Source: Caulobacter segnis ATCC 21756
GTDB taxonomy: Bacteria; Pseudomonadota; Alphaproteobacteria; Caulobacterales; Caulobacteraceae
Assembly: GCF_000092285.1 (NCBI RefSeq)
Contig: NC_014100.1
Span: forward strand, 496,001 to 560,000
Direction of reading: 5' to 3'
Length of the DNA stretch: 64,000 bases
A model generated the notes under the pieces. It worked only from the letters and a program-made list of their open reading frames with translations. It ran no database searches and was not told where the DNA came from. Made by a program: the position numbers and the translations under genes. This document shows positions 39,703 through 56,393 of the stretch, piece by piece (positions within the stretch are counted from its first letter, which is position 1; the number at the start of each line of letters is the position of its first letter).

Positions 39703-39742
39703 GCTAAGGGCTTGAAAAGCGGTGGAGGCCCGGCCGGGATCC
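39703..39742. repeat. Duplicated tRNA-Cys 3' end (putative attachment-site scar, island left border)
   Basis: This stretch repeats the 3' end of the tRNA-Cys gene and its downstream flank at 56354-56393 in the same orientation. The ungapped part 39703-39733 matches 56354-56384 at 29 of 31 bases (shared cores GCTTGAAAAG and GGTGGAGGCCCGG). After one single-base gap the match continues for about 8 more bases. Sequence to the right is visibly AT-richer than to the left. Confidence 0.75.
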
Positions 39743-40122
39743 ACTCGAGCCGACGAAGTCTGAACGCTGGCGGAGAGGGTGTCCGCTAAGAAGGGTGGTA
39801 AGTATTGTATTTTTTGCATTTTTTCGTTTCCGCCCCATTTCTACCCACATTTCTCGCGGACGCTGATGGGCGATGATTTGGCCCATACCGATGAAATGCC
39901 TCGCGACCGCCAATCTTGCTTTCACTCGTGTTGAAGCCGTAGCGACACTATCCGGAACGAGGGTCTTCTCGACGGCGCTAACGCAACGAGGCGAACGAAT
40001 ATGTCGAGAGACTGACGCTGGTGGTGTTATCGAGGTCTTCAAGCGGCTCTCTCTGCGCACATCATCGCGCCTAGTTATGGAGTGGACCGCGACGGCCCGC
40101 CGCCGCGGCTCGGAGAGATTTT
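39743..40122. other. AT-richer non-coding border region
   Basis: No convincing gene. GC drops by eye at about 39780-40080. Near the border there is a 14-base match (39768-39781, TGGCGGAGAGGGTG) to the 3' end of the tRNA-Ser gene at 56883. On the minus strand a short frame from about 39851 begins MGRKRKN, reminiscent of phage-integrase N-termini, but soon loses any recognisable sequence. The promoter of galE should lie near the right end. Confidence 0.5.
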
Positions 40123-41106
40123 ATGCAGACGGTTTTGGTGACCGGCGGAGCAGGCTATGTCGGGGCGCACTGTTGCTTGGCCCTGGCCGAGGCGGGATTT
40201 CAACCTGTCGTGTTCGATAACCTGTCCAACGGTCATCGCGAGCACGTCCAATGGGGCGCGCTTGAAGTCGGCGATATCCGCGATGCCGCCCGGTTGGATG
40301 CCGTGTTCGCGGCCCACGCGCCTATCGCCGTCTTACATTTTGCGGCCCGCATCGAGGTTGGTGAGTCGGTGAAGAACCCCGGCGCCTTCTTCGACAACAA
40401 TGTCGGGGGCGCCATCACCCTGATCGAGGCCGCCCGTCGGGCCGGCGTCAACGCCATGGTCTTTTCTTCGACCTGTGCGACGTTCGGCGATCCCGTGACG
40501 CTCCCGATGAATGAGAGTCATCCACAGTCGCCATTGAATCCTTATGGCCGCAGCAAGCTGATGGTCGAGCAGGCTCTGGCCGACTATGACCGCTATGTCG
40601 GGTTCAAAAGCGTGGTAATGCGCTACTTCAACGCCGCCGGCGCCGATCCTAAAGGACGCATTGGCGAGTTGCACGAACCCGAGACGCACGCCATTCCGGT
40701 GGCGATACAGGTGGCTCTGGGCCAGCGACCCCATTTCACGATCTTTGGCGACGATTACGACACTCGTGACGGCACTGCGATACGCGACTACGTTCACGTG
40801 CTGGACCTCGCAGACGCCCATGTCACGGCTCTGAAGCGGTTGCTAGCGGGCGGATCGTCGGAAACGTTCAACCTGGGAGCCGGAACGGGCACCACCGTGC
40901 GCGAGCTGGTCGACGGCGTTGTTCACGCCACCGGAAGGCCGCTGCCGCTGCAGATGGCGCCGCGCCGTGCTGGCGATGCGCCCGTGCTGGTCGCCGACAA
41001 CACCAAGGCGCGACAGATGCTCGGCTGGGCGCCCTCGCGCGATCTCAACGTGATACTGTCCAGCGCATGGCGCTGGCACGGAAGTCGAGTTTCCAGCGAT
41101 AGATGA
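40123..41106 (+). CDS. galE: UDP-glucose 4-epimerase family protein
   Basis: A 327-aa short-chain dehydrogenase/reductase of the UDP-glucose/GlcNAc 4-epimerase group, supplying UDP-galactose or UDP-GalNAc for polysaccharide synthesis. It has the NAD-binding GGAGYVGAH at residues 8-16, FDNLSNGH, the catalytic-region Ser/Thr in FSSTCATFG, and the catalytic Tyr and Lys in NPYGRSK, followed by RYFNAAGADP and RDYVHVLDLADAH. ATG 40123 has GGAGAG upstream. It is the first gene inside the island and is separated by 385 bp from the next. Choice between Glc and GlcNAc substrate cannot be made from sequence alone. Confidence 0.88.
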   Translation: MQTVLVTGGAGYVGAHCCLALAEAGFQPVVFDNLSNGHREHVQWGALEVGDIRDAARLDAVFAAHAPIAVLHFAARIEVGESVKNPGAFFDNNVGGAITLIEAARRAGVNAMVFSSTCATFGDPVTLPMNESHPQSPLNPYGRSKLMVEQALADYDRYVGFKSVVMRYFNAAGADPKGRIGELHEPETHAIPVAIQVALGQRPHFTIFGDDYDTRDGTAIRDYVHVLDLADAHVTALKRLLAGGSSETFNLGAGTGTTVRELVDGVVHATGRPLPLQMAPRRAGDAPVLVADNTKARQMLGWAPSRDLNVILSSAWRWHGSRVSSDR

Positions 41107-41491
41107 GGCGCGTGAGGAAGGCGTGACCGCTAACCAGCGAGGCGCTTGTCGGCTCCCGCTTGAATTCGAGGGCGCGCGTCGCCTAAAGCGAGGCTGTGGC
41201 TGGCGGGGCCAAGAACTCCACTGAGTTCGTGCTGAGGTAGAGTCTTCCCGTGTGCATTTCGTCACAATTCGATCGAACGCGCACGATATTCTTTTTAACT
41301 GAACTCTACCGGAATGCTGTGGCGGCGCCTGCGATTAGGGCGAAAATGTCCGTCGAAAGCGCACAAAACGGCTTGCCGCGAAAAAAGGTTGGTTAACAAC
41401 CCCTGCGAGCGGTTGTTCGATGAGCGCCGATTTAGTAAAGGCTTCTTAAATTTCGGGCAAAAGACCCGGTACAGAGACTGGTGGGGACCAC
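41107..41491. other. Intergenic region before the sugar transferase
   Basis: 385 bp with no supported gene. It becomes AT-rich from about 41270 to 41460, with several TTAA motifs, and presumably contains the promoter for the genes starting at 41492. I could not identify a definite -35/-10 pair or RNA structure. Confidence 0.45.
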
Positions 41492-42145
41492 GTGCTGATC
41501 GTATCTAATCCGACAGCGGAACAGCTACCATGCGCCGTTCAGGCGTCGCCGGTGGCGAAGGATCCGCTTAAGCGAGCGATGGACATTCTGGTGGCGGGGG
41601 GCGCCTTGCTCTTTTTCGCGCCTCTGCTTGCGCTCGTCGCCGTGCTGATCAAGCTGGAGTCGTCGGGACCGGTGCTCTTCCGTCAGGCCCGCGGCGGCTT
41701 GAACGGCCAAGCCTTCACGATCTTCAAGTTCCGCTCGATGCGTTGCCAGGAGAACGGCTCCAAGGTCGTTCAAGCTAAGCGCGACGATGACCGCATCACC
41801 ACGGTCGGCCGGATTATCCGCAAGACCAGCATCGACGAGTTGCCGCAACTGCTGAACGTCTTGCGCGGCGACATGTCGATCGTGGGGCCGCGTCCTCACG
41901 CTCTCGCGCACGACGAGCATTACGGCGCCCAGATCGCCAACTATCACTTGCGGTTCCGGGCGCGTCCTGGCCTGACGGGTCTGGCGCAGATCAAGGGGTT
42001 GCGTGGCGGCACCAACGAGGTTGAGGCCATGGCGGCCCGGATCGACGCCGATAACGAATATATCGAACGCTGGACGCTGAGCGGCGACATCAAGATCCTC
42101 TTGATGACGGTCCCGCACCTCCTGATGGCTGAGAACGCATATTAG
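41492..42145 (+). CDS. Undecaprenyl-phosphate sugar-1-phosphate transferase (initiating glycosyltransferase)
   Basis: A 217-aa bacterial sugar transferase (small monotopic PGT type, as in PssY/WcaJ C-terminal domains) that starts repeat-unit assembly by loading a sugar-1-phosphate on undecaprenyl phosphate. The N-terminal re-entrant hydrophobic segment is DILVAGGALLFFAPLLALVAVLIKLES. It is followed by GPVLFRQARGGLNGQAFTIFKFRSM, the catalytic region KTSIDELPQLLNVLRGDMSIVGPRP, and RARPGLTGLAQI. GTG 41492 follows GGTGGGG. It fits as the first enzyme of the Wzx/Wzy pathway encoded downstream. Confidence 0.9.
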   Translation: MLIVSNPTAEQLPCAVQASPVAKDPLKRAMDILVAGGALLFFAPLLALVAVLIKLESSGPVLFRQARGGLNGQAFTIFKFRSMRCQENGSKVVQAKRDDDRITTVGRIIRKTSIDELPQLLNVLRGDMSIVGPRPHALAHDEHYGAQIANYHLRFRARPGLTGLAQIKGLRGGTNEVEAMAARIDADNEYIERWTLSGDIKILLMTVPHLLMAENAY

Positions 42146-42317
42146 GGCGTGAAAGACGCGCTCCCTACTCGGCGTGCGTCTCTGTGACTTTCCAAACGTC
42201 GAAGTGTCACCCGAAACTGCTAGGTCGCCCGAAAAGTTTCGTGCGAGCGGGCTGGTGTCCAATGTCTATGAACTTTTTGTCCCGCATCCATTGGGCGGGT
42301 GAGTGTGTGGGGGATAT

Positions 42318-43625
42318 ATGCGCGTAGCGATGATTGGCACGGGTTATGTTGGCCTGGTGTCTGGGGCGTGTTTCGCCGACTTCGGTCACGTGGTGACGTG
42401 CATCGACAAGGATCCGAGCAAGATCGAGCGGCTGGAGCGGGGCGAGATCCCGATCTTCGAGCCTGGGCTTGATGACCTGGTGGCGCGCAACGTGCGCGAA
42501 GGTCGCCTGTTCTTCACCCTGGACGGCGCCCAGGCGATCAAGGAGGCCGACGCGGTGTTCATCGCCGTCGGCACGCCGACCCGTCGCGGCGATGGCCACG
42601 CCGACCTGTCTTACGTCTACGCCGCCGCTGAAGAGATCGCCGGCCTGATCGACGGCTACACCGTGGTAGTCACCAAGTCGACCGTGCCGGTGGGCACCGG
42701 CGACGAAGTCGAGGCAATCATCAAGAAGGTCCGCCCCGACGCCCAGTTCGCCGTGGTCTCCAACCCCGAGTTCCTGCGTGAAGGCGCGGCGATCGAGGAC
42801 TTCAAGCGCCCCGACCGCGTGGTGGTCGGCACGGACGACGAGCGGGCCCAGGCGGTGATGCGCGACCTCTACCGGCCGCTGAGCCTCAACGAGACGCCGA
42901 TCGTCTTCACCGGCCGCCGCACCAGCGAGCTGATCAAGTACGCGGCCAACGCCTTCCTGGCGATGAAGATCACCTTCATCAACGAGATGGCCGACCTCTG
43001 CGAGAAAGTCGGGGCCGACGTCCAGTCGGTGGCCAAAGGCATTGGCCTGGACAAGCGGATCGGCGGCAAGTTCCTGAACGCCGGCCCGGGCTATGGCGGC
43101 AGCTGCTTCCCCAAGGACACCATCGCACTGGTCAAGACCGCCCAGCAGTACGGCGCGCCGACCCGGCTGATCGAGACCACCGTCGAGGTCAACACCGCCC
43201 GCAAGAAGGCCATGGCCGACAAGGTCGCCGCCGCCATCGGCACGACCAACCTGGCCGGCAAGACGATCGGCGTCCTGGGCGTGACCTTCAAGCCCAACAC
43301 CGACGACATGCGCGATGCGCCCAGCCTCGACATCCTGCCGGCCCTGCAGGCCATGGGCGCCAAGGTCCAGGCCTTCGATCCGGAGGGCGCCAAGGAAGCC
43401 GCCCACATGCTGGAGGGCGTGGAGTTCAAGGCCGGCGCCTACGAGGCCGCCGAGGGCGCCGACGCCCTGGTCATCCTCACCGAATGGGACCAGTTCCGGG
43501 CCCTCGACCTCGACCGCGTCAAGCTGCTTCTGAAGGCGCCGGTCGTGGTCGACCTGCGCAACGTCTACAAGGCGGCCGAGATGGAGCGTCACGGCTTCAC
43601 CTACGCCTCCATCGGACGCGGCTGA
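42318..43625 (+). CDS. ugd: UDP-glucose 6-dehydrogenase
   Basis: A 435-aa enzyme oxidising UDP-glucose to UDP-glucuronate with NAD+. It has the N-terminal Rossmann motif IGTGYVGLVSGACFADFG, VGTPTRRGDGHADLSYV, NPEFLREGAAIEDF, KYAANAFLAMKITFINE, the catalytic Cys263 in GPGYGGSCFPKDT, and the C-terminal UDP-binding LGVTFKPNTDDMRDAPS. ATG 42318 is preceded by GGGGG; five extra codons are in frame upstream. By eye its base composition is as GC-rich as the chromosome, unlike several later island genes. Its stop overlaps the next glycosyltransferase (TGATG). It implies a uronic acid in the polysaccharide. Confidence 0.95.
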   Translation: MRVAMIGTGYVGLVSGACFADFGHVVTCIDKDPSKIERLERGEIPIFEPGLDDLVARNVREGRLFFTLDGAQAIKEADAVFIAVGTPTRRGDGHADLSYVYAAAEEIAGLIDGYTVVVTKSTVPVGTGDEVEAIIKKVRPDAQFAVVSNPEFLREGAAIEDFKRPDRVVVGTDDERAQAVMRDLYRPLSLNETPIVFTGRRTSELIKYAANAFLAMKITFINEMADLCEKVGADVQSVAKGIGLDKRIGGKFLNAGPGYGGSCFPKDTIALVKTAQQYGAPTRLIETTVEVNTARKKAMADKVAAAIGTTNLAGKTIGVLGVTFKPNTDDMRDAPSLDILPALQAMGAKVQAFDPEGAKEAAHMLEGVEFKAGAYEAAEGADALVILTEWDQFRALDLDRVKLLLKAPVVVDLRNVYKAAEMERHGFTYASIGRG

Positions 43626-44941
43626 TGTTCGGCAAGGGCGGGAGCAGCCCAGGCTCTAGGAAAGTCGCCTACCCGCTCGGCATGAACGCCGAGCGGGATC
43701 CGAACCCAGCGCAACGCGTCCTGATCGTCGCCCTGAACTACGCGCCGGAACAGGTGGGCTGCGCTAAATACACCACAGAATTGGCAGAAGATCTCGTCCG
43801 GCGAGGGCATGAAGTCGAGGTGGTTTGTGCGCCGCCCTATTATCCTCAGTGGGCAATCCAGGAGGAGTATTCGGGCGCGAGATGGACCACCGAGACTCTG
43901 AACGGCGTAAAACTGCATCGCACGCCGCTTTACGTGCCGCCAAAACCCACGGGGTTGAAGCGGGTGTTGCACCTCTTGTCTTTTGGCGCGGCTTCTCTTC
44001 CGGTGTCTGTCGCGGCGGCTCGTCGCTTCCGGCCCAACATAGTTTTCGCGGTCGCGCCCACGCTCACGTCGGCAACCGCGGCGCTTGCCGCCGCGAGGGC
44101 GATCAAGGCAAGAAGCTGGCTTCACATCCAGGATTTCGAGGTGGACGCCGCGTTTGATCTTGGCCTGCTCCACAATCGCGGTGCGCGAAGCTTGGCGCTT
44201 GGCGTTGAGCGAGCCCTTCTGCGGCAGTTTGATCAGGTCTCGAGCATCTCGCCCGCGATGACGGCGTTGCTAACGCGGAAGGGCGTTGAACCCGATAGGA
44301 TATTCGAGCTCCGCAACTGGGTTGATGTGGATGCTATCCAAGCTATGCCGGCGGGATATGGAACCTATCGCAAAGAGGTCGGTATTCCGAGCGACCATCT
44401 CGTGGCGCTCTATTCTGGCAACATGGCGGCAAAGCAGGGCATAGAGATGTTGGCCGAGGTCGCCCGCCGCATGGAGGCGAGCAACGCGCCTATCACATTC
44501 CTCCTCTGTGGCGACGGGCCTGCCCGCGCGCCACTGGAGGTATCCTGTGAGGGTCTCGGCAATGTTCGGTTCCTGCCCCTGCAGCCGGTCGAGCGACTAA
44601 ATGAGCTGCTGAACACCGCCGACATTCATTTGTTGCCCCAGAGACCCGAGGCCGCAGACCTAGTGTTGCCGTCCAAGCTTACAGGCATGCTCGCTTCTGG
44701 GCGCCCCGTGGTGGCCATGGCTCAACAGGGCTCGGGCTTGGCCAGCGAGATTGAAGGTTGCGGTGTCGCTGTCGAGGCGACAGTCGGAGCCATGGCCGAA
44801 GGGCTTCTGACCCTAAGCCGGGACGCTGCACTTAGGGCCCGTCTCGGCTCCACCGCCCGCCGATGCGCTGAGGAGCGATGGCGCAAGAGCGCCATCATCA
44901 GTGGATTTGAAGATCGGCTCTCGGCCCTATTTGCGAGTTAG
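43625..44941 (+). CDS. GT4 glycosyltransferase, WcaI-like
   Basis: A 438-aa GT-B fold glycosyltransferase resembling WcaI. The N-terminal Rossmann half begins VLIVALNYAPEQVGCAKYTTELAEDLVRRGHEVEVV. The C-terminal donor-binding half has YSGNMAAKQGIEMLAEV, LCGDGPAR, and ADLVLPSKLTGMLASGRPVVA with the E-equivalent region typical for this branch. It should add a sugar to the lipid-linked repeat unit in the cytoplasm. ATG 43625 overlaps the ugd stop; a second ATG at 43682 is possible. The donor is unknown; GDP-fucose from gmd/fcl or UDP-glucuronate from ugd are the candidates available in this locus. Confidence 0.88.
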   Translation: MFGKGGSSPGSRKVAYPLGMNAERDPNPAQRVLIVALNYAPEQVGCAKYTTELAEDLVRRGHEVEVVCAPPYYPQWAIQEEYSGARWTTETLNGVKLHRTPLYVPPKPTGLKRVLHLLSFGAASLPVSVAAARRFRPNIVFAVAPTLTSATAALAAARAIKARSWLHIQDFEVDAAFDLGLLHNRGARSLALGVERALLRQFDQVSSISPAMTALLTRKGVEPDRIFELRNWVDVDAIQAMPAGYGTYRKEVGIPSDHLVALYSGNMAAKQGIEMLAEVARRMEASNAPITFLLCGDGPARAPLEVSCEGLGNVRFLPLQPVERLNELLNTADIHLLPQRPEAADLVLPSKLTGMLASGRPVVAMAQQGSGLASEIEGCGVAVEATVGAMAEGLLTLSRDAALRARLGSTARRCAEERWRKSAIISGFEDRLSALFAS

Positions 44942-45127: not shown

Positions 45128-46918
45128 GTGAGACAAGCCATGTTCTCTTGCTCCTCCGATGCGCCAGACCGCAGATCCTTCCTGAAGACGAGCGCGTTCG
45201 GCGCCGCGGCGCTGGGAACGGGTTGGGCCGTGGCCAGTCCCGCATCACCTCACGCTGTCGGTCTGTTTACCGACCTGCGGGACACGAGCGTACCGCCGGG
45301 AAAGCAACTGATCGAAACAAGCGGCTTCCAGGTGGCGGGTGTCGGAGCGGCGGTATACCGGCGCTCCAGCAATGTCGGGGAGACGCATTTTCGGTCCCGT
45401 TCCGCAGATGGAGCCTGGTGGGAGTTGAACGAAAAAAGAGTGACGCTCGCCATGCTCGGTGCGCAGGACTCTGAACCGGGGAGCGGTGCTGCGACCGCAG
45501 TGTCTTCTAAGCCTACTGTCGTCGGCAAGCGTCAGATGGTTCGCGCCGGACAGCTCATCAACATGCCAAACGGCAGCGTACCGCTTGTCATCGCGGGCGA
45601 CGGAGCCCGCGTGGACGATGTACGCATCGCGGGAGATACACTGGCGCCGCAGCTTATCGGGGCAGCTTCCACCGTCGGCGGGCTATCGAACGTCCATGTG
45701 CGCTCTGTGGTACTGGGTGGCGTAGGCGTAAGGACGCTGCACGGCGTGAACCTGGCGGTCGGCGGTCTTCGGAATTGGAGTTTCCGGGACCTCGCCATCG
45801 ACAGCGCTGGCTACGGCTTCTTGACGAATGTGCCCTCCGGCGTGAGCGGGGCGAGCAACATGCGCCTCATGGACTTCTCGATCTCCGCAGGCTCTGACGC
45901 GATCGAACTGAACGCGCCTTACGCCGCCCAGATCAATACCGTCATTTGGGGCGGGCACCTTCAAGCAAGGCCAGCCGACCGTAAGACATCGGGGTTCTCC
46001 CTAGGGCTGGCTCACTGCTCATCCTTCGTAGCTGGCGGTTTTGTGTCTATTGGCTCGTCCAACGAGGGTGTCCATGTAGAGGATGGGTCCTCGTTGGGTG
46101 TCCTCGGCGCCTTCGTCCTGAACGAGACGGGGACAGAGGGTATCCGTCACTATCGGTCGGGGAAAAACTGGGGCGAAGGGACACCAATTGTCTTTTCTGC
46201 TTTCGCTGCCGCGCGAGCAGAAAGGGTCGGCTTCGCGGGAAGCAGCGGCTTTTATAATGCTTATGACGCACAGGGCGCTCAGGGGCGTTCACCCATCGTC
46301 GCCGCGTACTTCAAGGGCTATGAAACAGGGCTGTATCTAAATGGCCCTGAGTTATTCTCTGTCGGCTATGTCTCGGTGGACGGCGCAACCAACGTTCTTC
46401 ACTTGTCTTCCATGGGCAAAGCGCTCTCTTCAGTCGTTTACTCTGAGGGGGCCAAGGTCTTCTTGCGGGAGGAGGGTGGCAGGGGAGGTGGGGCGGAGGC
46501 TGGCGCCTTCCACCAACTAGACAGCGCACCGCTTAAGATCATCCAGCCTTCTATTGAACCCCGCCGCAGCGTCGCCTGCGTATCAGAGTTCAGTTGCCCG
46601 GCTCTTGGCCCTATTCCTAGGGAGGCCAGCGGCCCCAGCGGTATGTGGATTGATCTCTTTGCCGCGCCAGCTTTGATGAACGCCCGTGTGAAAGTCCGCG
46701 CGCTCGGCCAGGGGAGTATGTACTGGTCGGCGGACGTTTTTTATGACGGTAGGACTGTGACCGTCGAGCGGGTGTTGAAGAAGACGAGCGGGGACCTAGA
46801 GGTCTTGGAGCCGAGTCTGAGGGTGGCCGGCGGAAAGATGCAGTTCTTGGTCAAGGCCAAAAACGTGGGCGCCTTGAAATCCATCTGGCTCCACGTAGCT
46901 GGCGAATATTGTCTTTAG
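45128..46918 (+). CDS. Tat-exported right-handed beta-helix-like protein
   Basis: A 596-aa protein with a clear twin-arginine signal (DRRSFLKTSAFGAAALGTGWAVA). The body has the repetitive short-strand pattern of a parallel beta-helix (VDDVRIAGDTL, LSNVHVRSVVLGG, LRNWSFRDLAIDSAGYGF, MRLMDFSISAGSDAIEL), as in pectate-lyase-like proteins and phage tailspikes, with a distinct C-terminal beta domain. I saw no lyase active-site motif. The frame opens at GTG 45128, with ATG 45140 as an alternative; no strong ribosome-binding site decides. Set among glycosyltransferases it may trim, modify or bind the polysaccharide outside the cell. It is followed 17 bp later by an acyltransferase gene. Confidence 0.75.
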   Translation: MRQAMFSCSSDAPDRRSFLKTSAFGAAALGTGWAVASPASPHAVGLFTDLRDTSVPPGKQLIETSGFQVAGVGAAVYRRSSNVGETHFRSRSADGAWWELNEKRVTLAMLGAQDSEPGSGAATAVSSKPTVVGKRQMVRAGQLINMPNGSVPLVIAGDGARVDDVRIAGDTLAPQLIGAASTVGGLSNVHVRSVVLGGVGVRTLHGVNLAVGGLRNWSFRDLAIDSAGYGFLTNVPSGVSGASNMRLMDFSISAGSDAIELNAPYAAQINTVIWGGHLQARPADRKTSGFSLGLAHCSSFVAGGFVSIGSSNEGVHVEDGSSLGVLGAFVLNETGTEGIRHYRSGKNWGEGTPIVFSAFAAARAERVGFAGSSGFYNAYDAQGAQGRSPIVAAYFKGYETGLYLNGPELFSVGYVSVDGATNVLHLSSMGKALSSVVYSEGAKVFLREEGGRGGGAEAGAFHQLDSAPLKIIQPSIEPRRSVACVSEFSCPALGPIPREASGPSGMWIDLFAAPALMNARVKVRALGQGSMYWSADVFYDGRTVTVERVLKKTSGDLEVLEPSLRVAGGKMQFLVKAKNVGALKSIWLHVAGEYCL

Positions 46919-46935
46919 GAACTTTGGAGGCTGCT

Positions 46936-47508
46936 GTGTCGCGCGTTCAAGATTTATCTCGGTTCGAGTTGCCTGCGGGTTTCAGGGGGCGATCGGCGAT
47001 CACGGTGCAGCTATGGTGGCTAGTACAAGCCACGGCTTTCGCGGCGTCGCCCCAATTCTTATACGGATGGCGACGATGGCTTCTGCGCTGTTTTGGCGCT
47101 CGGATCGGCAAGAACGTGCTGATCCGACCCAGCGCCAGGATCACCTATCCCTGGAAGGTTACGATCGGCGACCGCAGTTGGGTGGGTGATCGGGCGGAAC
47201 TCTATAGCCTGGGGGAAATTGTGATTGGCCAGGACGCGGTCGTTTCCCAAAACAGCTATCTGTGCACCGGCAGTCACGATATCCGTGCGGTAGGTTTTGA
47301 CATCTTCGCTCAGTCCATCACGGTTGAAGATGAGGCGTGGGTCGCCGCCGATGTTTTCGTGCATCCAGGCGTGACGATTGCACGGGGCTCTGTCGTGGGC
47401 GCGCGTTCGGTGGTTACCAAATCCACGCGCCCCTACTACGTCCACACTGGATCCCCCGCCACTCCAGTGTCTCCAAGACGGTCCGATCTTGGGATTTTGG
47501 AACAGTAG
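46936..47508 (+). CDS. WcaF-like hexapeptide acetyltransferase
   Basis: A 190-aa left-handed beta-helix acyltransferase of the LbH/WcaF (colanic acid acetyltransferase) type, which O-acetylates a sugar from acetyl-CoA. The N-terminal helical part contains WWLVQATAFAASPQFLYGWRRWLLRCFGARIGKNVLIRPSARITYPWKVTIGD. The helix part has SQNSYLCTGSHDIRAVGFD and the catalytic-type His in GSHD. Later repeats are ITVEDEAWVAADVFVHPGVTIARGSVVGARSVVTKS. I chose GTG 46936 for the GGAGG 5 nt upstream rather than the TTG at 46909 that overlaps the previous gene. Confidence 0.88.
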   Translation: MSRVQDLSRFELPAGFRGRSAITVQLWWLVQATAFAASPQFLYGWRRWLLRCFGARIGKNVLIRPSARITYPWKVTIGDRSWVGDRAELYSLGEIVIGQDAVVSQNSYLCTGSHDIRAVGFDIFAQSITVEDEAWVAADVFVHPGVTIARGSVVGARSVVTKSTRPYYVHTGSPATPVSPRRSDLGILEQ

Positions 47509-47631
47509 CTAAATACTTGGCACGGATCCACCAGGCTACACGAGATAATCCGGACGAATCTTGGATCTTTCTGGGCGAAACCCGGCAACTCTCGCCATCA
47601 AATGGCGTTCAGGTCGGTCGATATTGAAAGC

Positions 47632-48854: not shown

Positions 48855-48974
48855 GACACACCTTTCCAATGCGTGTTCGAATTGTCGGTCGGACCTATCT
48901 GTGAAGCCGCCTTGATCATGGACTGGCTGTAGTCTTGTTCCCAAGCTCCAGCGAGCTTCGCGGTTGAGGCGCGA

Positions 48975-50276
48975 TTAGGCATGGAGCGGGGCCTTTCTAG
49001 AGGAGGGGTGAGCACGGGTTAGGCGATAACCGTTCGCGGAAATCAGCTTTCTTCTCGCGGCAGCCAGCGCGCCAATAGCCAGTGGCAGATAGGGATTTGC
49101 GATAAAGTAATTTGATGCTGACGCGCTAAAAACTATCGCTGTGAATATGTATATATATAGATATAGCGCGCTGTCATCAATTCTTCCGCTTAGTGCATCC
49201 TTGATGAAGGATTTGGCCGGGTAAAGGATCATGAATATGATGACAAATATACCTGCAAGCCCGTACTTGTGAAATACGGCGACGGGTAGAAAGTGAATAT
49301 TGTTGACGGACCTCATGCCTTGCAGTGCGTTGTTGCCAACGGAGGCGTCTAGAGAGCCTGACATGTCAATCGTCCGGCCCAGGCCTTTCCCGAATACGAC
49401 TTCTGCAACAGTCGCGCCTTCGAAGTCGCGCTTCACCATTTCGACTTCATAGAAGCGCTGAAAAGTAGCGATATTGTCTTCAAGTCTAGCGCCGCGTAGG
49501 AGCATCGCGCCTTCGCGCAGGTTTCTTGGGAGTGGCTTTAAGGCGGATGCATCCACAGTTACAGCTGCGACATAGGCCAGAAAGATGCAGGTAATAAGCC
49601 CGAGCAAGATTCCATAACGACGCCGATATAGAAGCACAACGCCTATAGCTGCGACAAGAGAAAGTAGTGACGCTCTAGACATTGCCAGTTTCGGCGTGAA
49701 ACTCGTCAAGTCGAGGTGCAGGAACACCAACCCCAATAGGCTGGCCAAACGATTCGTGTTGCTACCGTTCTGCGATGCGCCAAAAATGAAAATGGCCGCC
49801 ATTAGGGGATAGGGTAGTAAGGGCTCGGGCGATATGCTTGAAACGATGGATAGGGTGCAGGCAAATATGTAAAGCCATGGTGACGTGAGAATAGAGCGCG
49901 AATCTTCGTCAGAACTGCGATCCGTGTAAGATGTAAAGAAAAGCAGGGCTCCGACGTATGTGTATATTGTCCAGGAAATTATATATATAATTGAGTTTTG
50001 ATTGAATATGCCGATAATGGTGGAGCAAAGCACGGGGAGTGCTGCAAGGGCCGTTATTAGAGCGCCGCGCGGGGCATTAATTACGCGTTTCCTGGTGAAA
50101 AGGTAAAATAGGGCTCCTAAGCCCAGAGATGCGTATATCATTCCGTTGATATATGGAATGCGGGCGAAGCCTTGAATCCTCGCCACATACACTACGAGAA
50201 CGGTGGATATTATCACCACTGCCATATAATACAGTGTGTATAACGAGAGGCTGTCGAGCCTTTTCCTTGGGGGCAT
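48975..50276 (-). CDS. Wzy-like O-antigen polymerase/ligase family membrane protein
   Basis: A 433-aa integral membrane protein with roughly ten hydrophobic helices. A large polar loop in the second half contains VVFGKGLGRTIDMSG and NNIHFLPVAVFHKYGLAGIFVIIFMILYP, the pattern seen in the periplasmic loop and following helix of O-antigen polymerases (short G-x-G, then HN-like, then K-x-GL-G). It should polymerise lipid-linked repeat units in the periplasm. By eye its base composition is markedly AT-richer than the rest of the window, which is common for wzy genes and for transferred DNA. The start at 50276 is only 2 bp after the stop of the upstream glycosyltransferase. Confidence 0.8.
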   Translation of the reverse strand: MPPRKRLDSLSLYTLYYMAVVIISTVLVVYVARIQGFARIPYINGMIYASLGLGALFYLFTRKRVINAPRGALITALAALPVLCSTIIGIFNQNSIIYIISWTIYTYVGALLFFTSYTDRSSDEDSRSILTSPWLYIFACTLSIVSSISPEPLLPYPLMAAIFIFGASQNGSNTNRLASLLGLVFLHLDLTSFTPKLAMSRASLLSLVAAIGVVLLYRRRYGILLGLITCIFLAYVAAVTVDASALKPLPRNLREGAMLLRGARLEDNIATFQRFYEVEMVKRDFEGATVAEVVFGKGLGRTIDMSGSLDASVGNNALQGMRSVNNIHFLPVAVFHKYGLAGIFVIIFMILYPAKSFIKDALSGRIDDSALYLYIYIFTAIVFSASASNYFIANPYLPLAIGALAAARRKLISANGYRLTRAHPSSRKAPLHA

Positions 50277-50278
50277 TA

Positions 50279-51190
50279 TTACGCTCGGAATGAACGGTTT
50301 CTGGGCGAAAGTGCTGGATAGGCGGCTTCGAGCGCGCTGAATTGGCTGTCATTGCCTGCGGCTACCACGTTTTCATGGACTAGGCCGCACTCCTGAGATC
50401 GAGGCCAGTTTACAAAGTCAAACCGGGCGGGCGTGCGAATGCGCTGTATTCCGGCGAGTTCGGACATGGCGAACAGCCAAATATCGTCAGCCATCGGGCA
50501 AAGTCGCTGAAATGCCGCTTCATTTAAGGTCTCTTTCGGTAGGGCGGCGGGAGGGTAAATTATTCCTCCTATCCCTGTCAGAAACAGCCGGTTGTGGCTA
50601 TCCACGTCTGACCGGCGCCGGGTGTCGAACGTCCATTCAGCATAAGGCTTCGCGTGACCGTCCGGTGCAAATTTGGCGATATGGCCCCGTGTGCCCACAA
50701 TTGCCCTTGGGGTCAGGCGTGCTTGATCGACGATCGTTTTGAGCCAGTTCGGCGGATAGTAAGCGTCATCATCAGCTGTGACGATGTATGAATCTGAGTA
50801 CTCGCTTAAAGACGGGATAATTTTCTTGTAGGATCGCAGGTTCTTGCAGATCCGTATCTGTAGGCCAAAATTCACCAGTTCCAGGACATCGTCAGGCAGA
50901 GAGTGCTGGTCATTCTCCGCAAGCCAAAGCACGACTTTGTCGGCTTTTACGTTTTGCAGCAGAAGGCTTTTGATGGTGCATGCGAGAACGGGGTAGCGCG
51001 GTGGATATGAAGTCAGCGATACAACTAGTGGGGCCGACAGTCCATGATCGGATTGCGAAGATGGTGGCATAAAGGCGTTTAAAGCGTTGAGGGCGCGATT
51101 TGCGCGCCACGACGCAATGCCTTGATTAACAGATCTCTTTGCCGAAACGGACCATGGAGCGATTCTTTTAATCCACTTCTTCGCCGTCAT
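50279..51190 (-). CDS. GT-A-type glycosyltransferase
   Basis: A 303-aa protein with a GT-A fold pattern. The N-terminal strand is PLVVSLTSYPPRYPVLACTIKSLLLQNVKADKVVLWLAE, followed by a metal-binding-like DDD in SDSYIVTADDDAYYPPNWLKTIV and a later MADDIWLFAM. It should transfer one sugar in repeat-unit assembly. The family is less specific than for the GT4 genes, and I cannot assign a donor. ATG 51190 has a GAG-rich site upstream. It is divergent from the flippase gene across 87 bp, which must hold both promoters, and nearly abuts the Wzy-like gene downstream. Confidence 0.78.
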   Translation of the reverse strand: MTAKKWIKRIAPWSVSAKRSVNQGIASWRANRALNALNAFMPPSSQSDHGLSAPLVVSLTSYPPRYPVLACTIKSLLLQNVKADKVVLWLAENDQHSLPDDVLELVNFGLQIRICKNLRSYKKIIPSLSEYSDSYIVTADDDAYYPPNWLKTIVDQARLTPRAIVGTRGHIAKFAPDGHAKPYAEWTFDTRRRSDVDSHNRLFLTGIGGIIYPPAALPKETLNEAAFQRLCPMADDIWLFAMSELAGIQRIRTPARFDFVNWPRSQECGLVHENVVAAGNDSQFSALEAAYPALSPRNRSFRA

Positions 51191-51277
51191 CTCTACTCGC
51201 TCTCGCGATAATGATATAAGTCTCGATTAACTGTACACGCTAGGCCTCCTTTTCGCAAAGGGCGTCGGAGCTTTTGA

Positions 51278-52792
51278 ATGAGAAGGTCCTTCTTTCGAAT
51301 GGTTGTCAGAGGCGATGAGGCTCAGCCTGCTGAGGGACAGTTGGGCGCAAGAGCCACCAAAAGTGTGTTTTGGATTGGCGGGGCTCAAATTTTCAAAGCA
51401 TTCTCGATGTTGGTGTCGAGTCTTATAATCGCGCGCGTCTTATCTCCCGGAGATTTTGGGGTCGTTGCCATGGCCGCCCCTGTTACTGCATTTATCATAC
51501 TTTTTCAGGACCTCGGTTTATCGCAAGCTGTTATTCAGGCTAATAGCGTAAGGATGGTCGTCTTAAATAGTCTCTTCTGGATAAATATCCTGACGTCCAC
51601 CGCTATTATGGTAATCCTAATAATTGCATCTCCCTTTGTGGGTCTTTTCTATTCAGATGTTCGGGTGGGCTGGATTGTTGCTGCGTCCGCGCTAAATGTG
51701 CTGATTTCTGGCACGGCGTTGCAGCATTCGGCGCTCCTGGCGAGAGAACTGCGTTTCCGGCAACTGGCCTTTGTGGATCTATCCAGTGCGGCGGCCAACT
51801 TTCTAGTTTCGGTATCGGTGGCGCTCACGCTGAAGACCTACTGGGCGATATGGGGCGGCACCTTGGCGGGCGTGTTGGTGCAGGCGGCCCTACTCTGGAG
51901 GTTTGAGAAGTGGCGGCCTGCTGGCGTGGCGTTCAGTGGCGCGCGTGATTTCGTGAAATTTGGAGGGGGGGTTACAGGTTTCAACCTGCTCAATTTCTTG
52001 GTGCGGAATCTGGATAACGTCCTTGTGGCTCGCTTCTCAGGTGCGACGGCCGTCGGCCTTTATGATCAATCATACAAGCTGATGATGGCGCCGATGCAGA
52101 CAATCAACGCGCCCTTGGCCCGCGTAGTGATGCCAGTTCTAAGTCGCCTGCAGGGGGATCAAGCCAGATATCGGCGGGCATTTCTAACGGCCACCCGGGC
52201 CATGCTCCTAATATTGACGCCAGGCCTAGCGGTGGCGGTCGCCCTAAGTGACCGCCTCATCCCTTTCCTGCTAGGCGATCGGTGGGCAGCCGCTAGCCCC
52301 ATATTCTTTTGGCTAAGTCTCACGGGTCTTATACAACCTCTGGCCAATGCGACCGGTTGGCTCTTTCTCAGCAGCGGGCGCACGAATGCAATGTTCCATT
52401 GGGGTGTATTCTCCGCCGTGGTCACACTTGCTGGCTTCGCCGTGGGAATCCAGTGGGGGGCTGTGGGTGTCGCTGCTGCCCTGTTCTGGACGGCGCTTGT
52501 TCGTATGCCTTTGCTATTTGCCTGGTGTGTGAAGGGGACCGGTGTTAGGGCCCTAGATCTCTATGCGGTGCAAGTAGAGCCGATGGCGTGTGCGCTGGTG
52601 ACGATCCTATTGTCAAGGATCGTTTCGTCTTGGGGGCCAATGTACATCACTCTATTAATATGCGTGCCCCTATCCTATGCATTGGGTCTCTCTGCTTATT
52701 GCGTTTCCAGGGGGGGGAGACACTTCCTGAAGTCTATGATATCGACTGGTCGCCAGATGGTGTCTGGGCGAAAGAAGATCTCCGTCGTGTGA
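51278..52792 (+). CDS. Wzx-type polysaccharide flippase (WzxC-like)
   Basis: A 504-aa multi-spanning membrane protein of the polysaccharide transporter (MOP/PST) superfamily. It begins in the typical way with ATKSVFWIGGAQIFKAFSMLVSSLIIARVLSPGDFGVVAMAAPVTAFIILFQDLGLSQAVIQ, followed by about twelve to fourteen hydrophobic segments and FVKFGGGVTGFNLLNFLVRNLDNVLVARFSGATAVGLYDQSYKLMMAPMQTI, which is highly characteristic of WzxC-like proteins. It should flip lipid-linked oligosaccharide across the inner membrane. ATG 51278 follows GGAG at 7 nt. The gene is followed 31 bp later by an acyltransferase. Confidence 0.92.
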   Translation: MRRSFFRMVVRGDEAQPAEGQLGARATKSVFWIGGAQIFKAFSMLVSSLIIARVLSPGDFGVVAMAAPVTAFIILFQDLGLSQAVIQANSVRMVVLNSLFWINILTSTAIMVILIIASPFVGLFYSDVRVGWIVAASALNVLISGTALQHSALLARELRFRQLAFVDLSSAAANFLVSVSVALTLKTYWAIWGGTLAGVLVQAALLWRFEKWRPAGVAFSGARDFVKFGGGVTGFNLLNFLVRNLDNVLVARFSGATAVGLYDQSYKLMMAPMQTINAPLARVVMPVLSRLQGDQARYRRAFLTATRAMLLILTPGLAVAVALSDRLIPFLLGDRWAAASPIFFWLSLTGLIQPLANATGWLFLSSGRTNAMFHWGVFSAVVTLAGFAVGIQWGAVGVAAALFWTALVRMPLLFAWCVKGTGVRALDLYAVQVEPMACALVTILLSRIVSSWGPMYITLLICVPLSYALGLSAYCVSRGGRHFLKSMISTGRQMVSGRKKISVV

Positions 52793-52823
52793 AATTGATT
52801 ATATATTCAGCGAAGGTGTCGCC

Positions 52824-53432
52824 ATGTTGAGGCGTTTGATATATTTGTTTGGATTTAAGCGTGCCATCCGCGGCGTCTATGTTGAGGAAAATGTTCAATT
52901 GGATCGATGTGAATTCATCGGTCCGGTTCGGATTGGTTATCGTAGCTACGCGAACTTCAGTTTATTCCGCAACGTGTCGGTCGGTCGATATTGCTCGATT
53001 GGCCGTCGGTGCACCTTAGGGGCCGCCAAGCATCACATTGTGGGTCTGACAACCAGTCCATTCGGGGCCCCGTCCGGATTTGAGTCCGACGTCCAGACGA
53101 AGATTGGCAATGATGTATGGATTGGCGACAACGTCGTCGTCGTAGCGGGCGTCGAAGTGGGCGACGGAGCCATCATTGGCGCGGGCTCGATCGTGACCCA
53201 CGACGTGCCGCCTTACACAATTGTTGCTGGTGTACCCGCCCGGCCACTGCGCCCCAGATTTGATGAGGATGTCGTAAGCGAGCTAACCAGGATCGCCTGG
53301 TGGAGGTTTGGTGATGCGCCGGTGGAGATGTTCCGCGACGCATCAATCATTGAATTTATCAGCCGCTTTCAGGTGAATGGCCATTCACCTCTCGAGGAGC
53401 ACCATGGGATCTATCGCCGCCCAATATTTTAG
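52824..53432 (+). CDS. Hexapeptide-repeat acyltransferase
   Basis: A 202-aa left-handed beta-helix acyltransferase. Successive turns are visible in VYVEENVQLDRCEFIGPVRIGYRSYANFS and VSVGRYCSIGRRCTLGAAKHHIVGL (the His is in the expected catalytic place), and in IGNDVWIGDNVVVVAGVEVGDGAIIGAGSIVTHDVPPYTIVAGVPARPLRPRF, as in CatB/WbbJ-like enzymes. It probably acetylates a sugar of the repeat unit. ATG 52824 has AAGG 8-9 nt upstream. It is convergent with fcl, whose stop is 6 bp away. Confidence 0.88.
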   Translation: MLRRLIYLFGFKRAIRGVYVEENVQLDRCEFIGPVRIGYRSYANFSLFRNVSVGRYCSIGRRCTLGAAKHHIVGLTTSPFGAPSGFESDVQTKIGNDVWIGDNVVVVAGVEVGDGAIIGAGSIVTHDVPPYTIVAGVPARPLRPRFDEDVVSELTRIAWWRFGDAPVEMFRDASIIEFISRFQVNGHSPLEEHHGIYRRPIF

Positions 53433-53438
53433 GGCGTT

Positions 53439-54392
53439 CTAAGATCCTGGATTGGCAGAGAGGAAAGCTTGATAGGCGCTTTTCACGCCGTCCTCTAGGG
53501 CGATGGACGGCTGCCATCCCATGCCACGAAGCTTGTCTGCGCTCATCAGCTTGCGAGGGGTGCCGTCTGGCTTTGACGTGTCCTTGGCGATTTGGCCTGT
53601 GAAGCCCACAACTTCGCAAACCAGTTCGGCCAGTTCCAAGATTGTGATATCTTCGCCAGATCCCACATTGACGTGTTCGAAGTCCGAATAGGTCTTCATC
53701 AGAAAGACGCAGGCGTCGGCGCAGTCATCGGCATTCAGGAATTCGCGTCGCGGTGTCCCCGTCCCCCAGATCGTGATGCTGTCGGCGCCTGCCAGCTTCG
53801 CTTCATGTGCCTTGCGGATAAGCGCGGGCATCACGTGACTGCTGTTCAGGTCATAGTTGTCACCTAAGCCATAGAGGTTCGTCGGCATGGCGCTGATAAA
53901 GTCGCAGCCGTGCTGCTTGCGATAGGCCTGGGCCAGCTTGATGCCGGCGATCTTGGCGATCGCGTACCATTCGTTGGTCGGCTCCAGCGGGCCGGTGAGC
54001 AGGGCGTCTTCCGTGATCGGCTGCGGCGCGAACTTAGGATAGATGCACGACGAACCCAGGAACAGCACCTTGCCGACGCCGTTGCGCCAGGCCGCGTCGA
54101 CGATGTTCGTCTCGATGACCAGGTTGTTGTAGAGGAAGTCGGCCGGATAGGTGTCGTTGGCCAGAATGCCGCCGACCTTGGCCGCGGCCATGAAAATGGC
54201 GTCCGGCTTTTCCTTGGCGATCCAGGCCTCGACGGCGCTCTGGCGCTCGAGATCGAGGACATCGCGGCCGGCGGTCAGGATCTCGCAGCCTTCGGATGCG
54301 AGCCGGCGCACGATGGCCGAACCGACCATCCCGCGATGGCCAGCCACCCAGACGCGCTTGCCCTCAAGGGGGAAAATCACGTCATTCGGCAT
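53439..54392 (-). CDS. fcl: GDP-L-fucose synthase
   Basis: A 317-aa NADPH-dependent epimerase/reductase that converts GDP-4-keto-6-deoxymannose to GDP-L-fucose. It has the nucleotide-binding [22 protein letters not shown], the Ser of GSSCIYPK, and the catalytic Tyr and Lys of [12 protein letters not shown], followed by [25 protein letters not shown] and [13 protein letters not shown] 54392 has GGGAGAA upstream; eight extra codons lie in frame before it. The start overlaps the end of gmd by 11 bp, so the two enzymes of this pathway are translationally coupled. Confidence 0.95.
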
Positions 54393-55458
54393 TGCGACGC
54401 TTCTCCCGCGCGACATTGATCATGTCGGCCGCGACCATTTCGGCGCAGAGCTGCTCCCACTTGGTTTCGTGGACCCAGCCAAGCTTGGTCTTGGCCTTGG
54501 TCGGATCGCCGATCAGCAGCTCGACCTCGGTCGGGCGGAAGTAGCGCGGGTCGACCTCGACCAGCACCTTGCCGGTCTCGGCGCACGTGCCCTTTTCATC
54601 GACGCCCGTACCCGACCAGTTGATCGTGATGCCGACTTCCGAGAAGGCCTTGGTCACGAAGTCGCGGACCAGGGTGGTTTCGCCGGTGGCCAGGACGTAG
54701 TCGTCGGCCGTCTCCTGCTGCAGCATCAGCCACATGCCGCGGACGTATTCGCGGGCGTGACCCCAGTCGCGCTTGGCGTCGAGGTTGCCGAGATAGAGCT
54801 TGTCCTGGAAGCCCTGCTTGATGGCCGCGACGGCGCGGGTGATCTTGCGGGTGACGAAGGTCTCGCCCCGCAGCGGGCTTTCGTGGTTGAACAGGATGCC
54901 GTTGCTGGCGTGGATGCCATACGCCTCGCGGTAGTTCACCACGATCCAATAGCTGTAGAGCTTGGCGGCGGCGTAGGGGCTGCGCGGATAGAACGGGGTC
55001 TTTTCGCTCTGCGGCACTTCCTGGACCAGGCCGTACAGCTCCGAGGTCGAGGCCTGGTAGAACTTGGTCTTCTTTTCCAGGCCCAGGATGCGGATGGCTT
55101 CCAGCAGGCGCAGGGTGCCAGTGCCGTCGGCGTTGCTAGTGTATTCCGGAGTCTCGAAGCTGACCTGGACGTGGCTTTGGGCCGCCAGGTTGTAGATCTC
55201 GTCCGGCTGGGTCTGCTGCACGATCCGGATCAGGTTCGTGCTGTCGGTCATGTCGCCGTAATGCAGGATGAAGCGCTGATCGGCTTCATGCGGGTCCTGA
55301 TAGAGGTGCTCGATCCGGCCGGTGTTGAACGACGACGAGCGTCGCTTCAGGCCGTGTACCGTATAGCCCTTCGAGAGCAGCAGCTCCGACAGGTACGCGC
55401 CATCTTGCCCGGTCACGCCCGTGATGAGCGCAACCTTACCATTGCTTTTAACCGTCAT
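54382..55458 (-). CDS. gmd: GDP-mannose 4,6-dehydratase
   Basis: A 358-aa enzyme catalysing the first step from GDP-D-mannose toward GDP-L-fucose or GDP-rhamnose. It has [48 protein letters not shown], the catalytic SPYAAAKLY, and [23 protein letters not shown] 55458 follows GGTGGGGATCTA; 17 more codons are open upstream but lack a site. It is the first gene of the gmd-fcl pair, transcribed away from the long non-coding stretch next to tRNA-Cys. No GDP-mannose-forming enzyme is encoded in the window, so GDP-mannose must come from elsewhere. Confidence 0.95.
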
Positions 55459-56353
55459 TAGATCCCCACCTTCGAGAACGCAGCTATTCCGCTTGCGTAG
55501 CCGCGTCATAGCGTAAGCTGCTGATCGACGCGACCCTCGTAATAGCCTTGGCGCGTCAAAAAATTCAGTTTGGGCGTCAGATAGGCGCCGCTAACCATAA
55601 GCCGTCTGTGATCTTATTCACGCTACATTACAGGATTATATTTTCGGGGGATGCTGCGGTGGAATCTGATAGCGCGCGAAGCGCGGTGTACTCTGACCTC
55701 TATTGTGGATGCTAGGCACCCGTCGTTATTAATATTAATGCTTCGATATGGCGTGCCGCTAAATCAAACGAAGGTCAGAGAGGGGCGTCCAGGGAATATC
55801 GCGTTCGGGGATGGCGTGCCACGGCGTAGAGGCACACAACGAGCTTGGTGATTAAAGACCTCTAGTCAGTAAGAACCTTCCGATCCATTCCGCCGTTGAG
55901 CGGCTCAGGCCGGATGGCGGCCTGCACTCCAGCAAGGCACCCCCTTCACAGCCTCGCCGAGCGCCCAGTAGACGCTCTCGTGTCATGGTCGGTGCCCTCC
56001 GCCTTTCTGCTTGAAGGTGCGGCCAAGCTCCGAGAGCACGACCACGGTCGTATTCGGCCAAATCACTGGGCGAAGGTCTTCTGCCAGGCTCGCGGACGTT
56101 TAGGATATTGATGCGAGAGCAGCTTCTTATTCTTCGTGAGCGGGCGCGCTTGTGGTGGGGATGGTCGAGCGGATCCGTCAGATGCTAGGGGAGGGCTGCA
56201 AGAAGAATCCTTACTCTAGTCAATAGATATGTCTGGCAGGAGGCTGTGGGGAAATTGGTCGCCGCCGTTGCAGATAAGAGGCGAGGTGTGTCGCAAGCAA
56301 AACTAGAATGAATTTCGCAAACTGATCTGCCGGCATGCCGGGTAGGTGTGGTT
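55459..56353. other. Long non-coding stretch between gmd and tRNA-Cys
   Basis: Nearly 900 bp with no supported gene on either strand. Short open frames (for example 55651-55851 and 55852-56061) have no ribosome-binding site and no recognisable protein. Parts (55540-55780) are AT-rich. This is where an integrase would normally sit next to the tRNA, so it may be a decayed remnant. The gmd promoter should lie at the left end. Confidence 0.5.
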
Positions 56354-56393
56354 GCTAAGTGCTTGAAAAGTGGTGGAGGCCCGGGCCGGAATC
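56354..56393. repeat. tRNA-Cys 3' end plus flank, right copy of the island border repeat
   Basis: Contains the last bases of tRNA-Cys (from 56374) and 20 bases of downstream flank. Bases 56354-56384 match 39703-39733 at 29 of 31 positions in the same orientation. Confidence 0.75.

What the first reader, a model, noticed from the sequence alone, without database searches (positions are those of the whole stretch)
39703..56393. Polysaccharide locus bounded by a duplicated tRNA-Cys 3' end: an unmarked genomic island
Bases 39703-39733 repeat 56354-56384 at 29 of 31 positions, in the same orientation, and the match continues after a one-base gap. The right copy is the 3' end of an intact tRNA-Cys plus 20 bases of flank; the left copy is only that fragment. 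The tRNA 3' end faces the island, as integration by a tyrosine recombinase leaves it. The enclosed 16.7 kb is one functional unit (Wzx/Wzy polysaccharide with GDP-fucose), and several genes look AT-richer than the flanks. No integrase is recognisable, so an island finder relying on integrases would miss it.
Basis: partly seen in the sequence, partly recalled or inferred. Interest (0 to 1): 0.85.

Follow-up and report, generated by a model that had tools for sequence, protein, structure and literature searches.

The report
Capsule-type island at Caulobacter tRNA-Ser
A block of sugar-coat genes in a Caulobacter chromosome looks like an old mobile island that entered at a serine tRNA gene rather than the cysteine tRNA first suggested, and the only cysteine tRNA gene found in the genome now sits inside it, so losing the island could cost the cell an essential gene.

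Summary
Bases 39703-39733 match 56354-56384 at 29 of 31 positions, and the alignment runs on to 39742 after a one-base gap. The right copy is the 3' end and trailer of an intact tRNA-Cys.

The reading as a tRNA-Cys island is only half right. Twenty-five bases inside the left copy lies a better attachment site: 39768-39788, TGGCGGA-GAGGGTG-TCCGCTA. Its first 14 bases are an exact copy of the 3' end of tRNA-Ser(CGA), 56883-56896. Across 75 genus genomes this core lies on the tRNA-Ser(CGA) contig in six (own included), always 3' of it in direct orientation, 1.3 to 77 kb away. In four of these an integrase frame, one shortened, starts 135-215 bases from the core. G069 has the same end, a related GDP-fucose locus and an integrase remnant beside tRNA-Ser.

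I conclude: a decayed polysaccharide island in tRNA-Ser(CGA), 39768-56883, integrase lost. The left tRNA-Cys piece is probably the stump of a resident gene; the only tRNA-Cys found now lies inside the island. How it got there is inferred. No empty site was found, and the closest relative, G025, lacks the core.

The parts
38233..39609 (+). Left host flank: reading frame with a GDPD domain, beside the purple acid phosphatase frame 37322-38686
   Evidence: Pfam GDPD 4.6e-25; DNA similarity to G025 ends at 39542 and to G072 at 39440
39768..39788 (+). Distal attachment core TGGCGGA-GAGGGTG-TCCGCTA; 39768-39781 is an exact copy of the tRNA-Ser 3' end; arms pair at 6 of 7 around a 7-base spacer
39789..39888 (+). 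Island arm with similarity to G069, holding ACCCACATTT-like motifs that may be integrase arm sites (recalled idea, not tested)
   Evidence: (39768-39853, 75%, E 2e-6)
40123..41106 (+). UDP-glucose 4-epimerase GalE
   Evidence: TIGR01179 410.6 bits, cut-off 262.3
41492..42145 (+). Initiating sugar-phosphate transferase, catalytic part only
   Evidence: PF02397 1.1e-63; TIGR03023 318.5 bits, below its cut-off of 410.75
42303..43625 (+). Nucleotide sugar dehydrogenase (UDP-glucose dehydrogenase type)
   Evidence: TIGR03026 462.6 bits, cut-off 189.8
43682..44941 (+). WcaI-family glycosyltransferase (start trimmed; the open frame begins at 43484)
   Evidence: NF007640 522.8 bits, cut-off 276
45128..46918 (+). 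596-aa protein with a twin-arginine-like signal, otherwise unassigned
   Evidence: TIGR01409 19.4 bits, cut-off 16.7; no Pfam match at 0.001
46909..47508 (+). Hexapeptide-repeat transferase
   Evidence: PF00132 3.5e-12
47670..48944 (-). Group 1 glycosyltransferase
   Evidence: PF00534 3.1e-26
48975..50276 (-). 433-aa protein, putative Wzy polymerase by position only
   Evidence: no Pfam or NCBIfam match; inference
50279..51190 (-). Weak group 2 glycosyltransferase
   Evidence: PF00535 1.2e-4, 22.5 bits against a cut-off of 23.3
51278..52792 (+). Wzx-type flippase
   Evidence: PF13440 6.5e-73
52824..53432 (+). Hexapeptide-repeat transferase
   Evidence: PF00132 1.8e-15
53439..54416 (-). GDP-L-fucose synthase
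   Evidence: NF047922 538 bits, cut-off 500
54382..55509 (-). GDP-mannose 4,6-dehydratase
   Evidence: TIGR01472 611.8 bits, cut-off 415
56306..56373 (-). tRNA-Cys trailer that keeps similarity to relatives' trailers
56374..56447 (-). Intact tRNA-Cys(gca), the only one found in the genome, inside the interval between the two tRNA-Ser cores
56883..56896 (+). Proximal core: 3' end of tRNA-Ser(CGA), identical to 39768-39781
56883..56972 (-). tRNA-Ser(cga), proposed integration target

Best explanation
A polysaccharide (capsule or exopolysaccharide type) island entered this Caulobacter chromosome at the 3' end of tRNA-Ser(CGA). A tyrosine integrase would have recombined the tRNA-Ser 3' end with an island site built as TGGCGGA-GAGGGTG-TCCGC(C/T)A, two inverted 7-base arms around a 7-base overlap. 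The tRNA was restored at 56883 and a 14-base copy left at 39768. The integrase was later lost. In close relatives tRNA-Cys lies 3' of tRNA-Ser in the same orientation, so the tRNA-Cys piece outside the distal core (39703-39742) is the stump of that resident gene. The intact tRNA-Cys next to tRNA-Ser is a second copy that came with, or was duplicated with, the island. Because it now lies between the two core copies and is the only one found, excision through the cores would remove the cell's tRNA-Cys, so the island is probably fixed. Shown: the two core copies, the core family and its integrases, the shared left end in G069, the places of both tRNA-Cys copies. Inferred: integrase action here, the origin of the second tRNA-Cys, the lock-in.
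For: Exact 14-base core copies at 39768 and 56883, the only two in 94 kb; none with 1 mismatch, two with 2. The 21-base core is identical in G069. Pattern search at up to 2 mismatches: 11 hits in 9 of 75 genomes, none for the reversed control. Six hits share a contig with tRNA-Ser(CGA) (anticodon confirmed by ARAGORN in all six), all on its 3' side in direct orientation: G036 1.3 kb, G032 11.6, G069 16.6, G000 17.1, G040 61.7, G006 76.9. Counted from the core, integrase frames start at 215, 215 and 165 bases in G006, G040 and G032 (48-88% identical), and at 135 in G036 a shortened relative (42-51% over about 150 aa) without a Phage_integrase match. Relatives (48-50%) sit beside tRNA-Ser(CGA) in G011 and G026 and a remnant does in G069. 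Arms pair at 6-7 of 7 in the six sites, 1 of 7 in tRNA-Ser. G069 holds an epimerase remnant, GT4a, hexA, GT1, GFS (93%) and GMD (96%) in the order found here. tRNA-Cys lies 3' of tRNA-Ser in G025 (191 bases), G063 (4.1 kb), G043 (16 kb) and G022 (58 kb). Low G+C.
Against: On its own the 14-base copy was not significant (E 0.10, with a trailer-only match scoring better at E 0.029); the case rests on the genus-wide core. No integrase or remnant was found in the window with four family members as queries. No empty site was seen. G025, the closest relative at these flanks, has no core at up to 2 mismatches, yet has BacTransf, epimerase, UGD, GMD and GFS about 8-17 kb right of the same left anchor in another order, so the genes need not have arrived here with this core. 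Sequence outside the left core resembles G025's tRNA-Ser spacer only weakly (30 of 3000 controls); in an anchored test of 37 trailers G025's was not among the best six, and the best of all was an 8-base match (12 of 2000). Two tRNA-Cys copies need a step beyond simple integration. The G069-G000 local alignment score was matched by 3 of 300 random window segments, so the shared end rests mainly on the identical 21-mer and its rarity. In G069 hexA is on the opposite strand and a second GT1-like gene lies by tRNA-Ser.
Confidence: 0.6

Rival explanations
1. One reading: an element specific for tRNA-Cys inserted between the two tRNA-Cys 3' ends, and the tRNA-Ser core copy travelled with it from another genome.
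For: 29 of 31 repeat in the right orientation. The left copy has partly inverted arms (5 of 7). Second tRNA-Cys copies also lie 3' of tRNA-Cys in G063 and G005. DNA 3' of tRNA-Cys shows no blastn match beyond the trailer among G000, G025 and G063 while the 5' side is shared.
Against: Trailer evidence runs the wrong way. No integrase tied to tRNA-Cys was found in the genomes examined: the one beyond the polysaccharide genes of G012 sits beside tRNA-Ser(GCT). G017 has integrase matches 2.3 kb on the 5' side and 22 kb on the 3' side of tRNA-Cys and G005 one 28 kb off, not followed up. The copies in G063 and G005 extend about 130-180 bases into the trailer and, in G005, through the whole gene, so they look like duplicated genes rather than attachment sites. 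The seven bases in the overlap position differ between the copies because of the gap.
Confidence: 0.15
2. No site-specific insertion in this lineage: a resident polysaccharide locus in a fast-rearranging neighbourhood, with the tRNA pieces left by segmental duplication or recombination.
For: Blocks of this window are reordered between G000, G025 and G072. Homologues of locus proteins lie 3' of tRNA-Cys in many genomes: 18 of 60 loci with a tRNA-Cys (59 genomes; 3' spans of 0.2-19.5 kb), distant Wzx-like and epimerase-like hits included. The 5' neighbours of tRNA-Cys are shared mainly within small groups among 25 genomes. [quoted passage not shown]
Against: The core with its inverted arms, its integrases and its constant place 3' of tRNA-Ser is not explained by random rearrangement.
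Confidence: 0.22

Closest known systems
26-kb mobile genetic element of Caulobacter crescentus NA1000
   Same: A mobile region carrying polysaccharide genes including GDP-fucose synthesis, Wzx and glycosyltransferases (PMC4241560, PMC5749776, passages)
   Different: NA1000's element is described with a conjugation/integrase complex and HipBA (PMC11945714, passages); none was recognised here. Its attachment site was not seen: Marks et al. 2010 is not held, so identity of site is untested.
tRNA-targeted genomic islands (Islander class)
   Same: Intact tRNA plus displaced 3' fragment in direct orientation with the island between (PMC4383910, passages)
   Different: No integrase, so Islander's filter would reject it; a second tRNA gene lies inside and a stump of the same tRNA type lies outside
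tRNA-Ser(CGA) islands of other Caulobacter (G006, G032, G036, G040, G069)
   Same: Same core, same side and orientation; G069 has a related GDP-fucose locus
   Different: Four keep an integrase frame (one shortened) beside the distal core. No tRNA-Cys lies inside G069's or G036's; only the ends of G006, G032 and G040 were read

Membership tests
tRNA-targeted tyrosine-recombinase genomic island | Intact tRNA and displaced 3' fragment of the same tRNA in direct orientation | tested here: met
   tRNA-Ser 56883-56896 and 39768-39781, exact 14 bases
tRNA-targeted tyrosine-recombinase genomic island | Integrase gene in or beside the element | tested here: not met
   No match in the 13 main locus proteins nor by tblastn of four family members against the window; present in G006, G032, G040, shortened in G036. 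So it is filed as a decayed island, not an active one
tRNA-targeted tyrosine-recombinase genomic island | Core with inverted arms around an overlap identical in both copies | tested here: met
   Overlap GAGGGTG in both copies; arms 6 of 7 at the distal core
tRNA-targeted tyrosine-recombinase genomic island | Empty site in a relative | tested here: inconclusive
   None seen in searches of 75 genus genomes, one genome per species; no same-species strain was available
NA1000-type capsule mobile element | GDP-fucose and Wzx polysaccharide genes | tested here: met
NA1000-type capsule mobile element | Conjugation/integrase complex and HipBA | tested here: not met
   None among the 13 main locus proteins scanned against Pfam
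NA1000-type capsule mobile element | Same attachment site | not testable with these tools
   Source paper not held; no NA1000 record was read

The most novel reading that the evidence does not exclude
The island captured the cell's sole tRNA-Cys: the copy it carried made the resident one redundant, the resident decayed to a 40-base stump, and excision became lethal, fixing a costly coat-sugar locus in the chromosome without any toxin-antitoxin system.
Probability: 0.38. Interest if true: 0.65.

Novelty: new member of a known kind. Interest (0 to 1): 0.42.

Why it matters
It identifies a recurrent Caulobacter integration site, tRNA-Ser(CGA), with a short diagnostic core that maps island ends even when the integrase is gone, and ties a GDP-fucose polysaccharide locus to it in two species. 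In C. crescentus such loci govern capsule, buoyancy and phage CR30 resistance (PMC4241560, PMC5749776, passages). It also shows how a longer, more visible repeat (tRNA-Cys) can point to the wrong target. If the captured-tRNA reading holds, it is a simple and testable way for an island to become permanent.

Tried and rejected
Empty-site search for the left flank: close relatives of the phosphatase (86-93% identity) were found only in G025, G072 and, on a short contig, G070, the next being 55% in G034; G072 and G070 continue alike, G025 and G000 each differently. A whole-gene reading of the left tRNA-Cys copy, with a 15 of 18 match to the 5' flank: 328 of 4920 window segments scored as well (22 of 2000 shuffles), so dropped. 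A link between the G012 integrase and tRNA-Cys: dropped once that integrase proved to sit beside tRNA-Ser(GCT). Looser trailer comparisons were uninformative and were replaced by the anchored test. The 843 bases right of GMD gave no integrase remnant but a stretch conserved in a few relatives. The first genome-contig scan with the phosphatase found nothing. A G065 core with an integrase match on its other side remains unexplained.
Full report
What was claimed and what is there. The window lies at 496001-560000 of a single-contig 4.66 Mb genome. Of 16 named loci found through the right flank, 12 carry a Caulobacter title, one an Alphaproteobacteria title and three unrelated titles; two of the Caulobacter contigs agree in number and length with contigs of G022 (BP25) and G063 (a MAG), which the genome search lists as the same genus as the window. 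The repeat is as described: 29 of 31, direct, with a one-base gap and then a few more matching bases, to 39742. No other 31-mer in 94 kb of own chromosome reaches 19 matches. The right copy is the 3' end of tRNA-Cys(gca), 56374-56447 minus. The enclosed genes form one polysaccharide unit: GalE, a sugar-phosphate transferase, a nucleotide sugar dehydrogenase, glycosyltransferases, Wzx, GDP-fucose synthase and GDP-mannose dehydratase. The Wzy call for 48975-50276 is by position only. The interval is 58.6% G+C against 68% on both sides.

Why tRNA-Cys is probably not the target. In G063, G022, G011 and G012 the tRNA-Cys trailer is conserved over roughly 80-150 bases. In an anchored ungapped test the sequence left of the right copy (about 56306-56331) resembles that trailer (1, 4, 3 and 21 of 10000 window controls as good), whereas the sequence left of the left copy does not (8278-8461 of 10000). 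Simple integration at tRNA-Cys predicts the opposite. Of 30 relatives whose own tRNA-Cys 3' end was compared with the DNA beyond it, over 16 to 120 kb, G063 and G005 had strong second copies on the 3' side (E 1.6e-22 and 2e-20), but these extend about 130-180 bases into the trailer and, in G005, through the whole gene; they look like decayed gene duplicates. A 22-base trailer-only match in G031 (E 5e-4) and a 38-base match on the 5' side in G034 (E 3e-6) were also seen. G000 is the only one of the 75 with two copies of the 24-base pattern at up to 3 mismatches; five genomes match it at all, so relatives with a diverged trailer could be missed.

The tRNA-Ser core. A scan with the tRNA-Ser 3' end found a 14-base exact copy at 39768-39781, 17,115 bases from tRNA-Ser and 25 bases inside the left tRNA-Cys piece. 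By itself this match is not significant (E 0.10; a trailer-only match at E 0.029 scored better). In G069 the same scan found a 32-base, 84% copy 16.6 kb 3' of tRNA-Ser (E 8e-4). G000 and G069 share the 21-mer TGGCGGAGAGGGTGTCCGCTA, with weaker similarity into the island (E 2e-6 in the genome search; but 3 of 300 random window segments reached the local alignment score). Across 75 genomes the 21-mer occurs 11 times in 9 genomes at up to 2 mismatches, with no hit for the reversed control. Six hits lie on the contig that holds tRNA-Ser(CGA), in G000, G006, G032, G036, G040 and G069; all are 3' of it and in direct orientation, from 1.3 to 76.9 kb away, and ARAGORN reads the anticodon as cga in all six. 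The other five (one of two in G032, both in G065, and those in G055 and G061) are on contigs for which one search showed no tRNA-Ser row. Three of these five lie in open frames of 376-677 codons and are probably chance matches in coding sequence (L228, L231, L232). Counted from the core, integrase frames of 398, 399 and 382 codons start at 215, 215 and 165 bases in G006, G040 and G032, each with a Phage_integrase match there. In G036 a 317-codon relative starts at 135; it has no Phage_integrase match and was recognised by similarity over about 150 residues. Relatives also sit beside tRNA-Ser(CGA) in G011 and G026, and a remnant does in G069 (29.0 bits, cut-off 27.1). The core has the form arm-overlap-inverted arm, 7-7-7, with 6 or 7 of 7 arm positions pairing; tRNA-Ser itself pairs at 1 and the left tRNA-Cys copy at 5. 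That tyrosine recombinase cores look like this is recalled knowledge.

Is the cargo the same? G069 carries, from its core towards tRNA-Ser, an epimerase remnant, GT4a (58%), hexA (42%), GT1 (56%), GFS (93%) and GMD (96%) in the order found here, hexA on the other strand, plus a further GT1-like gene (48%) by tRNA-Ser that has no counterpart here. UGD appears there only as a weak 102-residue match. So the backbone is shared and the centre differs. G025, in contrast, has BacTransf (96%), epimerase (87%), UGD (93%), GMD (99%) and GFS (91%) about 8-17 kb right of the same GDPD anchor, in another order, without the core at up to 2 mismatches, and with tRNA-Cys 106 kb away. This speaks against a single clean insertion and is the main reason for my moderate confidence. 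Order is fluid in the region: window blocks 26308-32247 and 32308-39542, neighbours here, lie on opposite sides of the polysaccharide genes in G025, and in G072 the second lies on the 5' side of tRNA-Cys.

The two tRNA-Cys copies. In G025 and G063 tRNA-Cys lies on the 3' side of tRNA-Ser in the same orientation, 191 bases and 4.1 kb away; in G043 and G022 it is 16 and 58 kb away. In other genomes it lies elsewhere. An island entering tRNA-Ser should push tRNA-Cys to its far side, and just outside the distal core there is indeed a tRNA-Cys piece. The 25 bases between them resemble G025's spacer only weakly (30 of 3000 controls), and G025 was not among the best six of 37 trailers in an anchored test. 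The intact tRNA-Cys with its spacer, 97.6% identical to G025 over 56359-56523, must then have come with the island or been duplicated with it. I cannot show which. A search of the genome with this gene finds no other, so the interval between the two cores includes the only tRNA-Cys detected. That excision would be lethal follows from this and from the general need for tRNA-Cys; it is untested.

Known relatives. The nearest described system is the 26-kb NA1000 element, which carries fcl, gmd2, Wzx and glycosyltransferases and gives capsule, buoyancy and CR30 resistance (PMC4241560, PMC5749776, PMC3764195, passages), along with a conjugation/integrase complex and HipBA (PMC11945714, passages). 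Its attachment site was not available. Searches of the paper library for Caulobacter with genomic island, tRNA-Ser and integrase, for island-borne tRNA terms, and for Caulobacter with genomic island, polysaccharide and tRNA listed no paper whose title or abstract start concerns this site; only the listed rows were seen (10 of 113, 4 of 4 and 12 of 30), so this is not proof of absence.

Verdict. Real island ends, wrong tRNA. The best reading is a decayed, integrase-free polysaccharide island in tRNA-Ser(CGA), 39768-56883, with the sole tRNA-Cys inside. It is a new member of a known kind; the captured tRNA is the part that would be surprising if confirmed.

Noticed in passing
55921-56094: Intergenic stretch upstream of GDP-mannose dehydratase with 73-81% matches in five relatives: upstream of GMD in G011 (about 0.5 kb) and G017 (2 kb), but elsewhere in G073, G025 and G022; possible leader or mobile repeat.
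   Followed up: partly
L037:13344-13471 and L187 about 5.1 kb 3' of tRNA-Cys: Decayed second copies of tRNA-Cys with long trailers in G063 and G005.
   Followed up: partly
tRNA-Cys loci of 17 genomes: tRNA-Asn(gtt) lies 0.3-6.3 kb 3' of tRNA-Cys in 17 of 60 loci with a tRNA-Cys, perhaps the older arrangement of the genus.
   Followed up: no
L206:5764-7272 (G012): A related integrase (46-48%) sits beside tRNA-Ser(GCT).
   Followed up: partly
L229 (G036): A 1.3-kb element of just the attachment core and a shortened integrase frame at tRNA-Ser(CGA), a nearly empty island.
   Followed up: partly
L233 (G065): A core with an integrase match on its other side, as in a joined or tandem site; unexplained.
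   Followed up: no
45128-46918: 596-aa protein of the locus with only a twin-arginine-like signal recognised.
   Followed up: no
41492-42145: The sugar-phosphate transferase matches only positions 253-453 of the 453-position WcaJ model.
   Followed up: no
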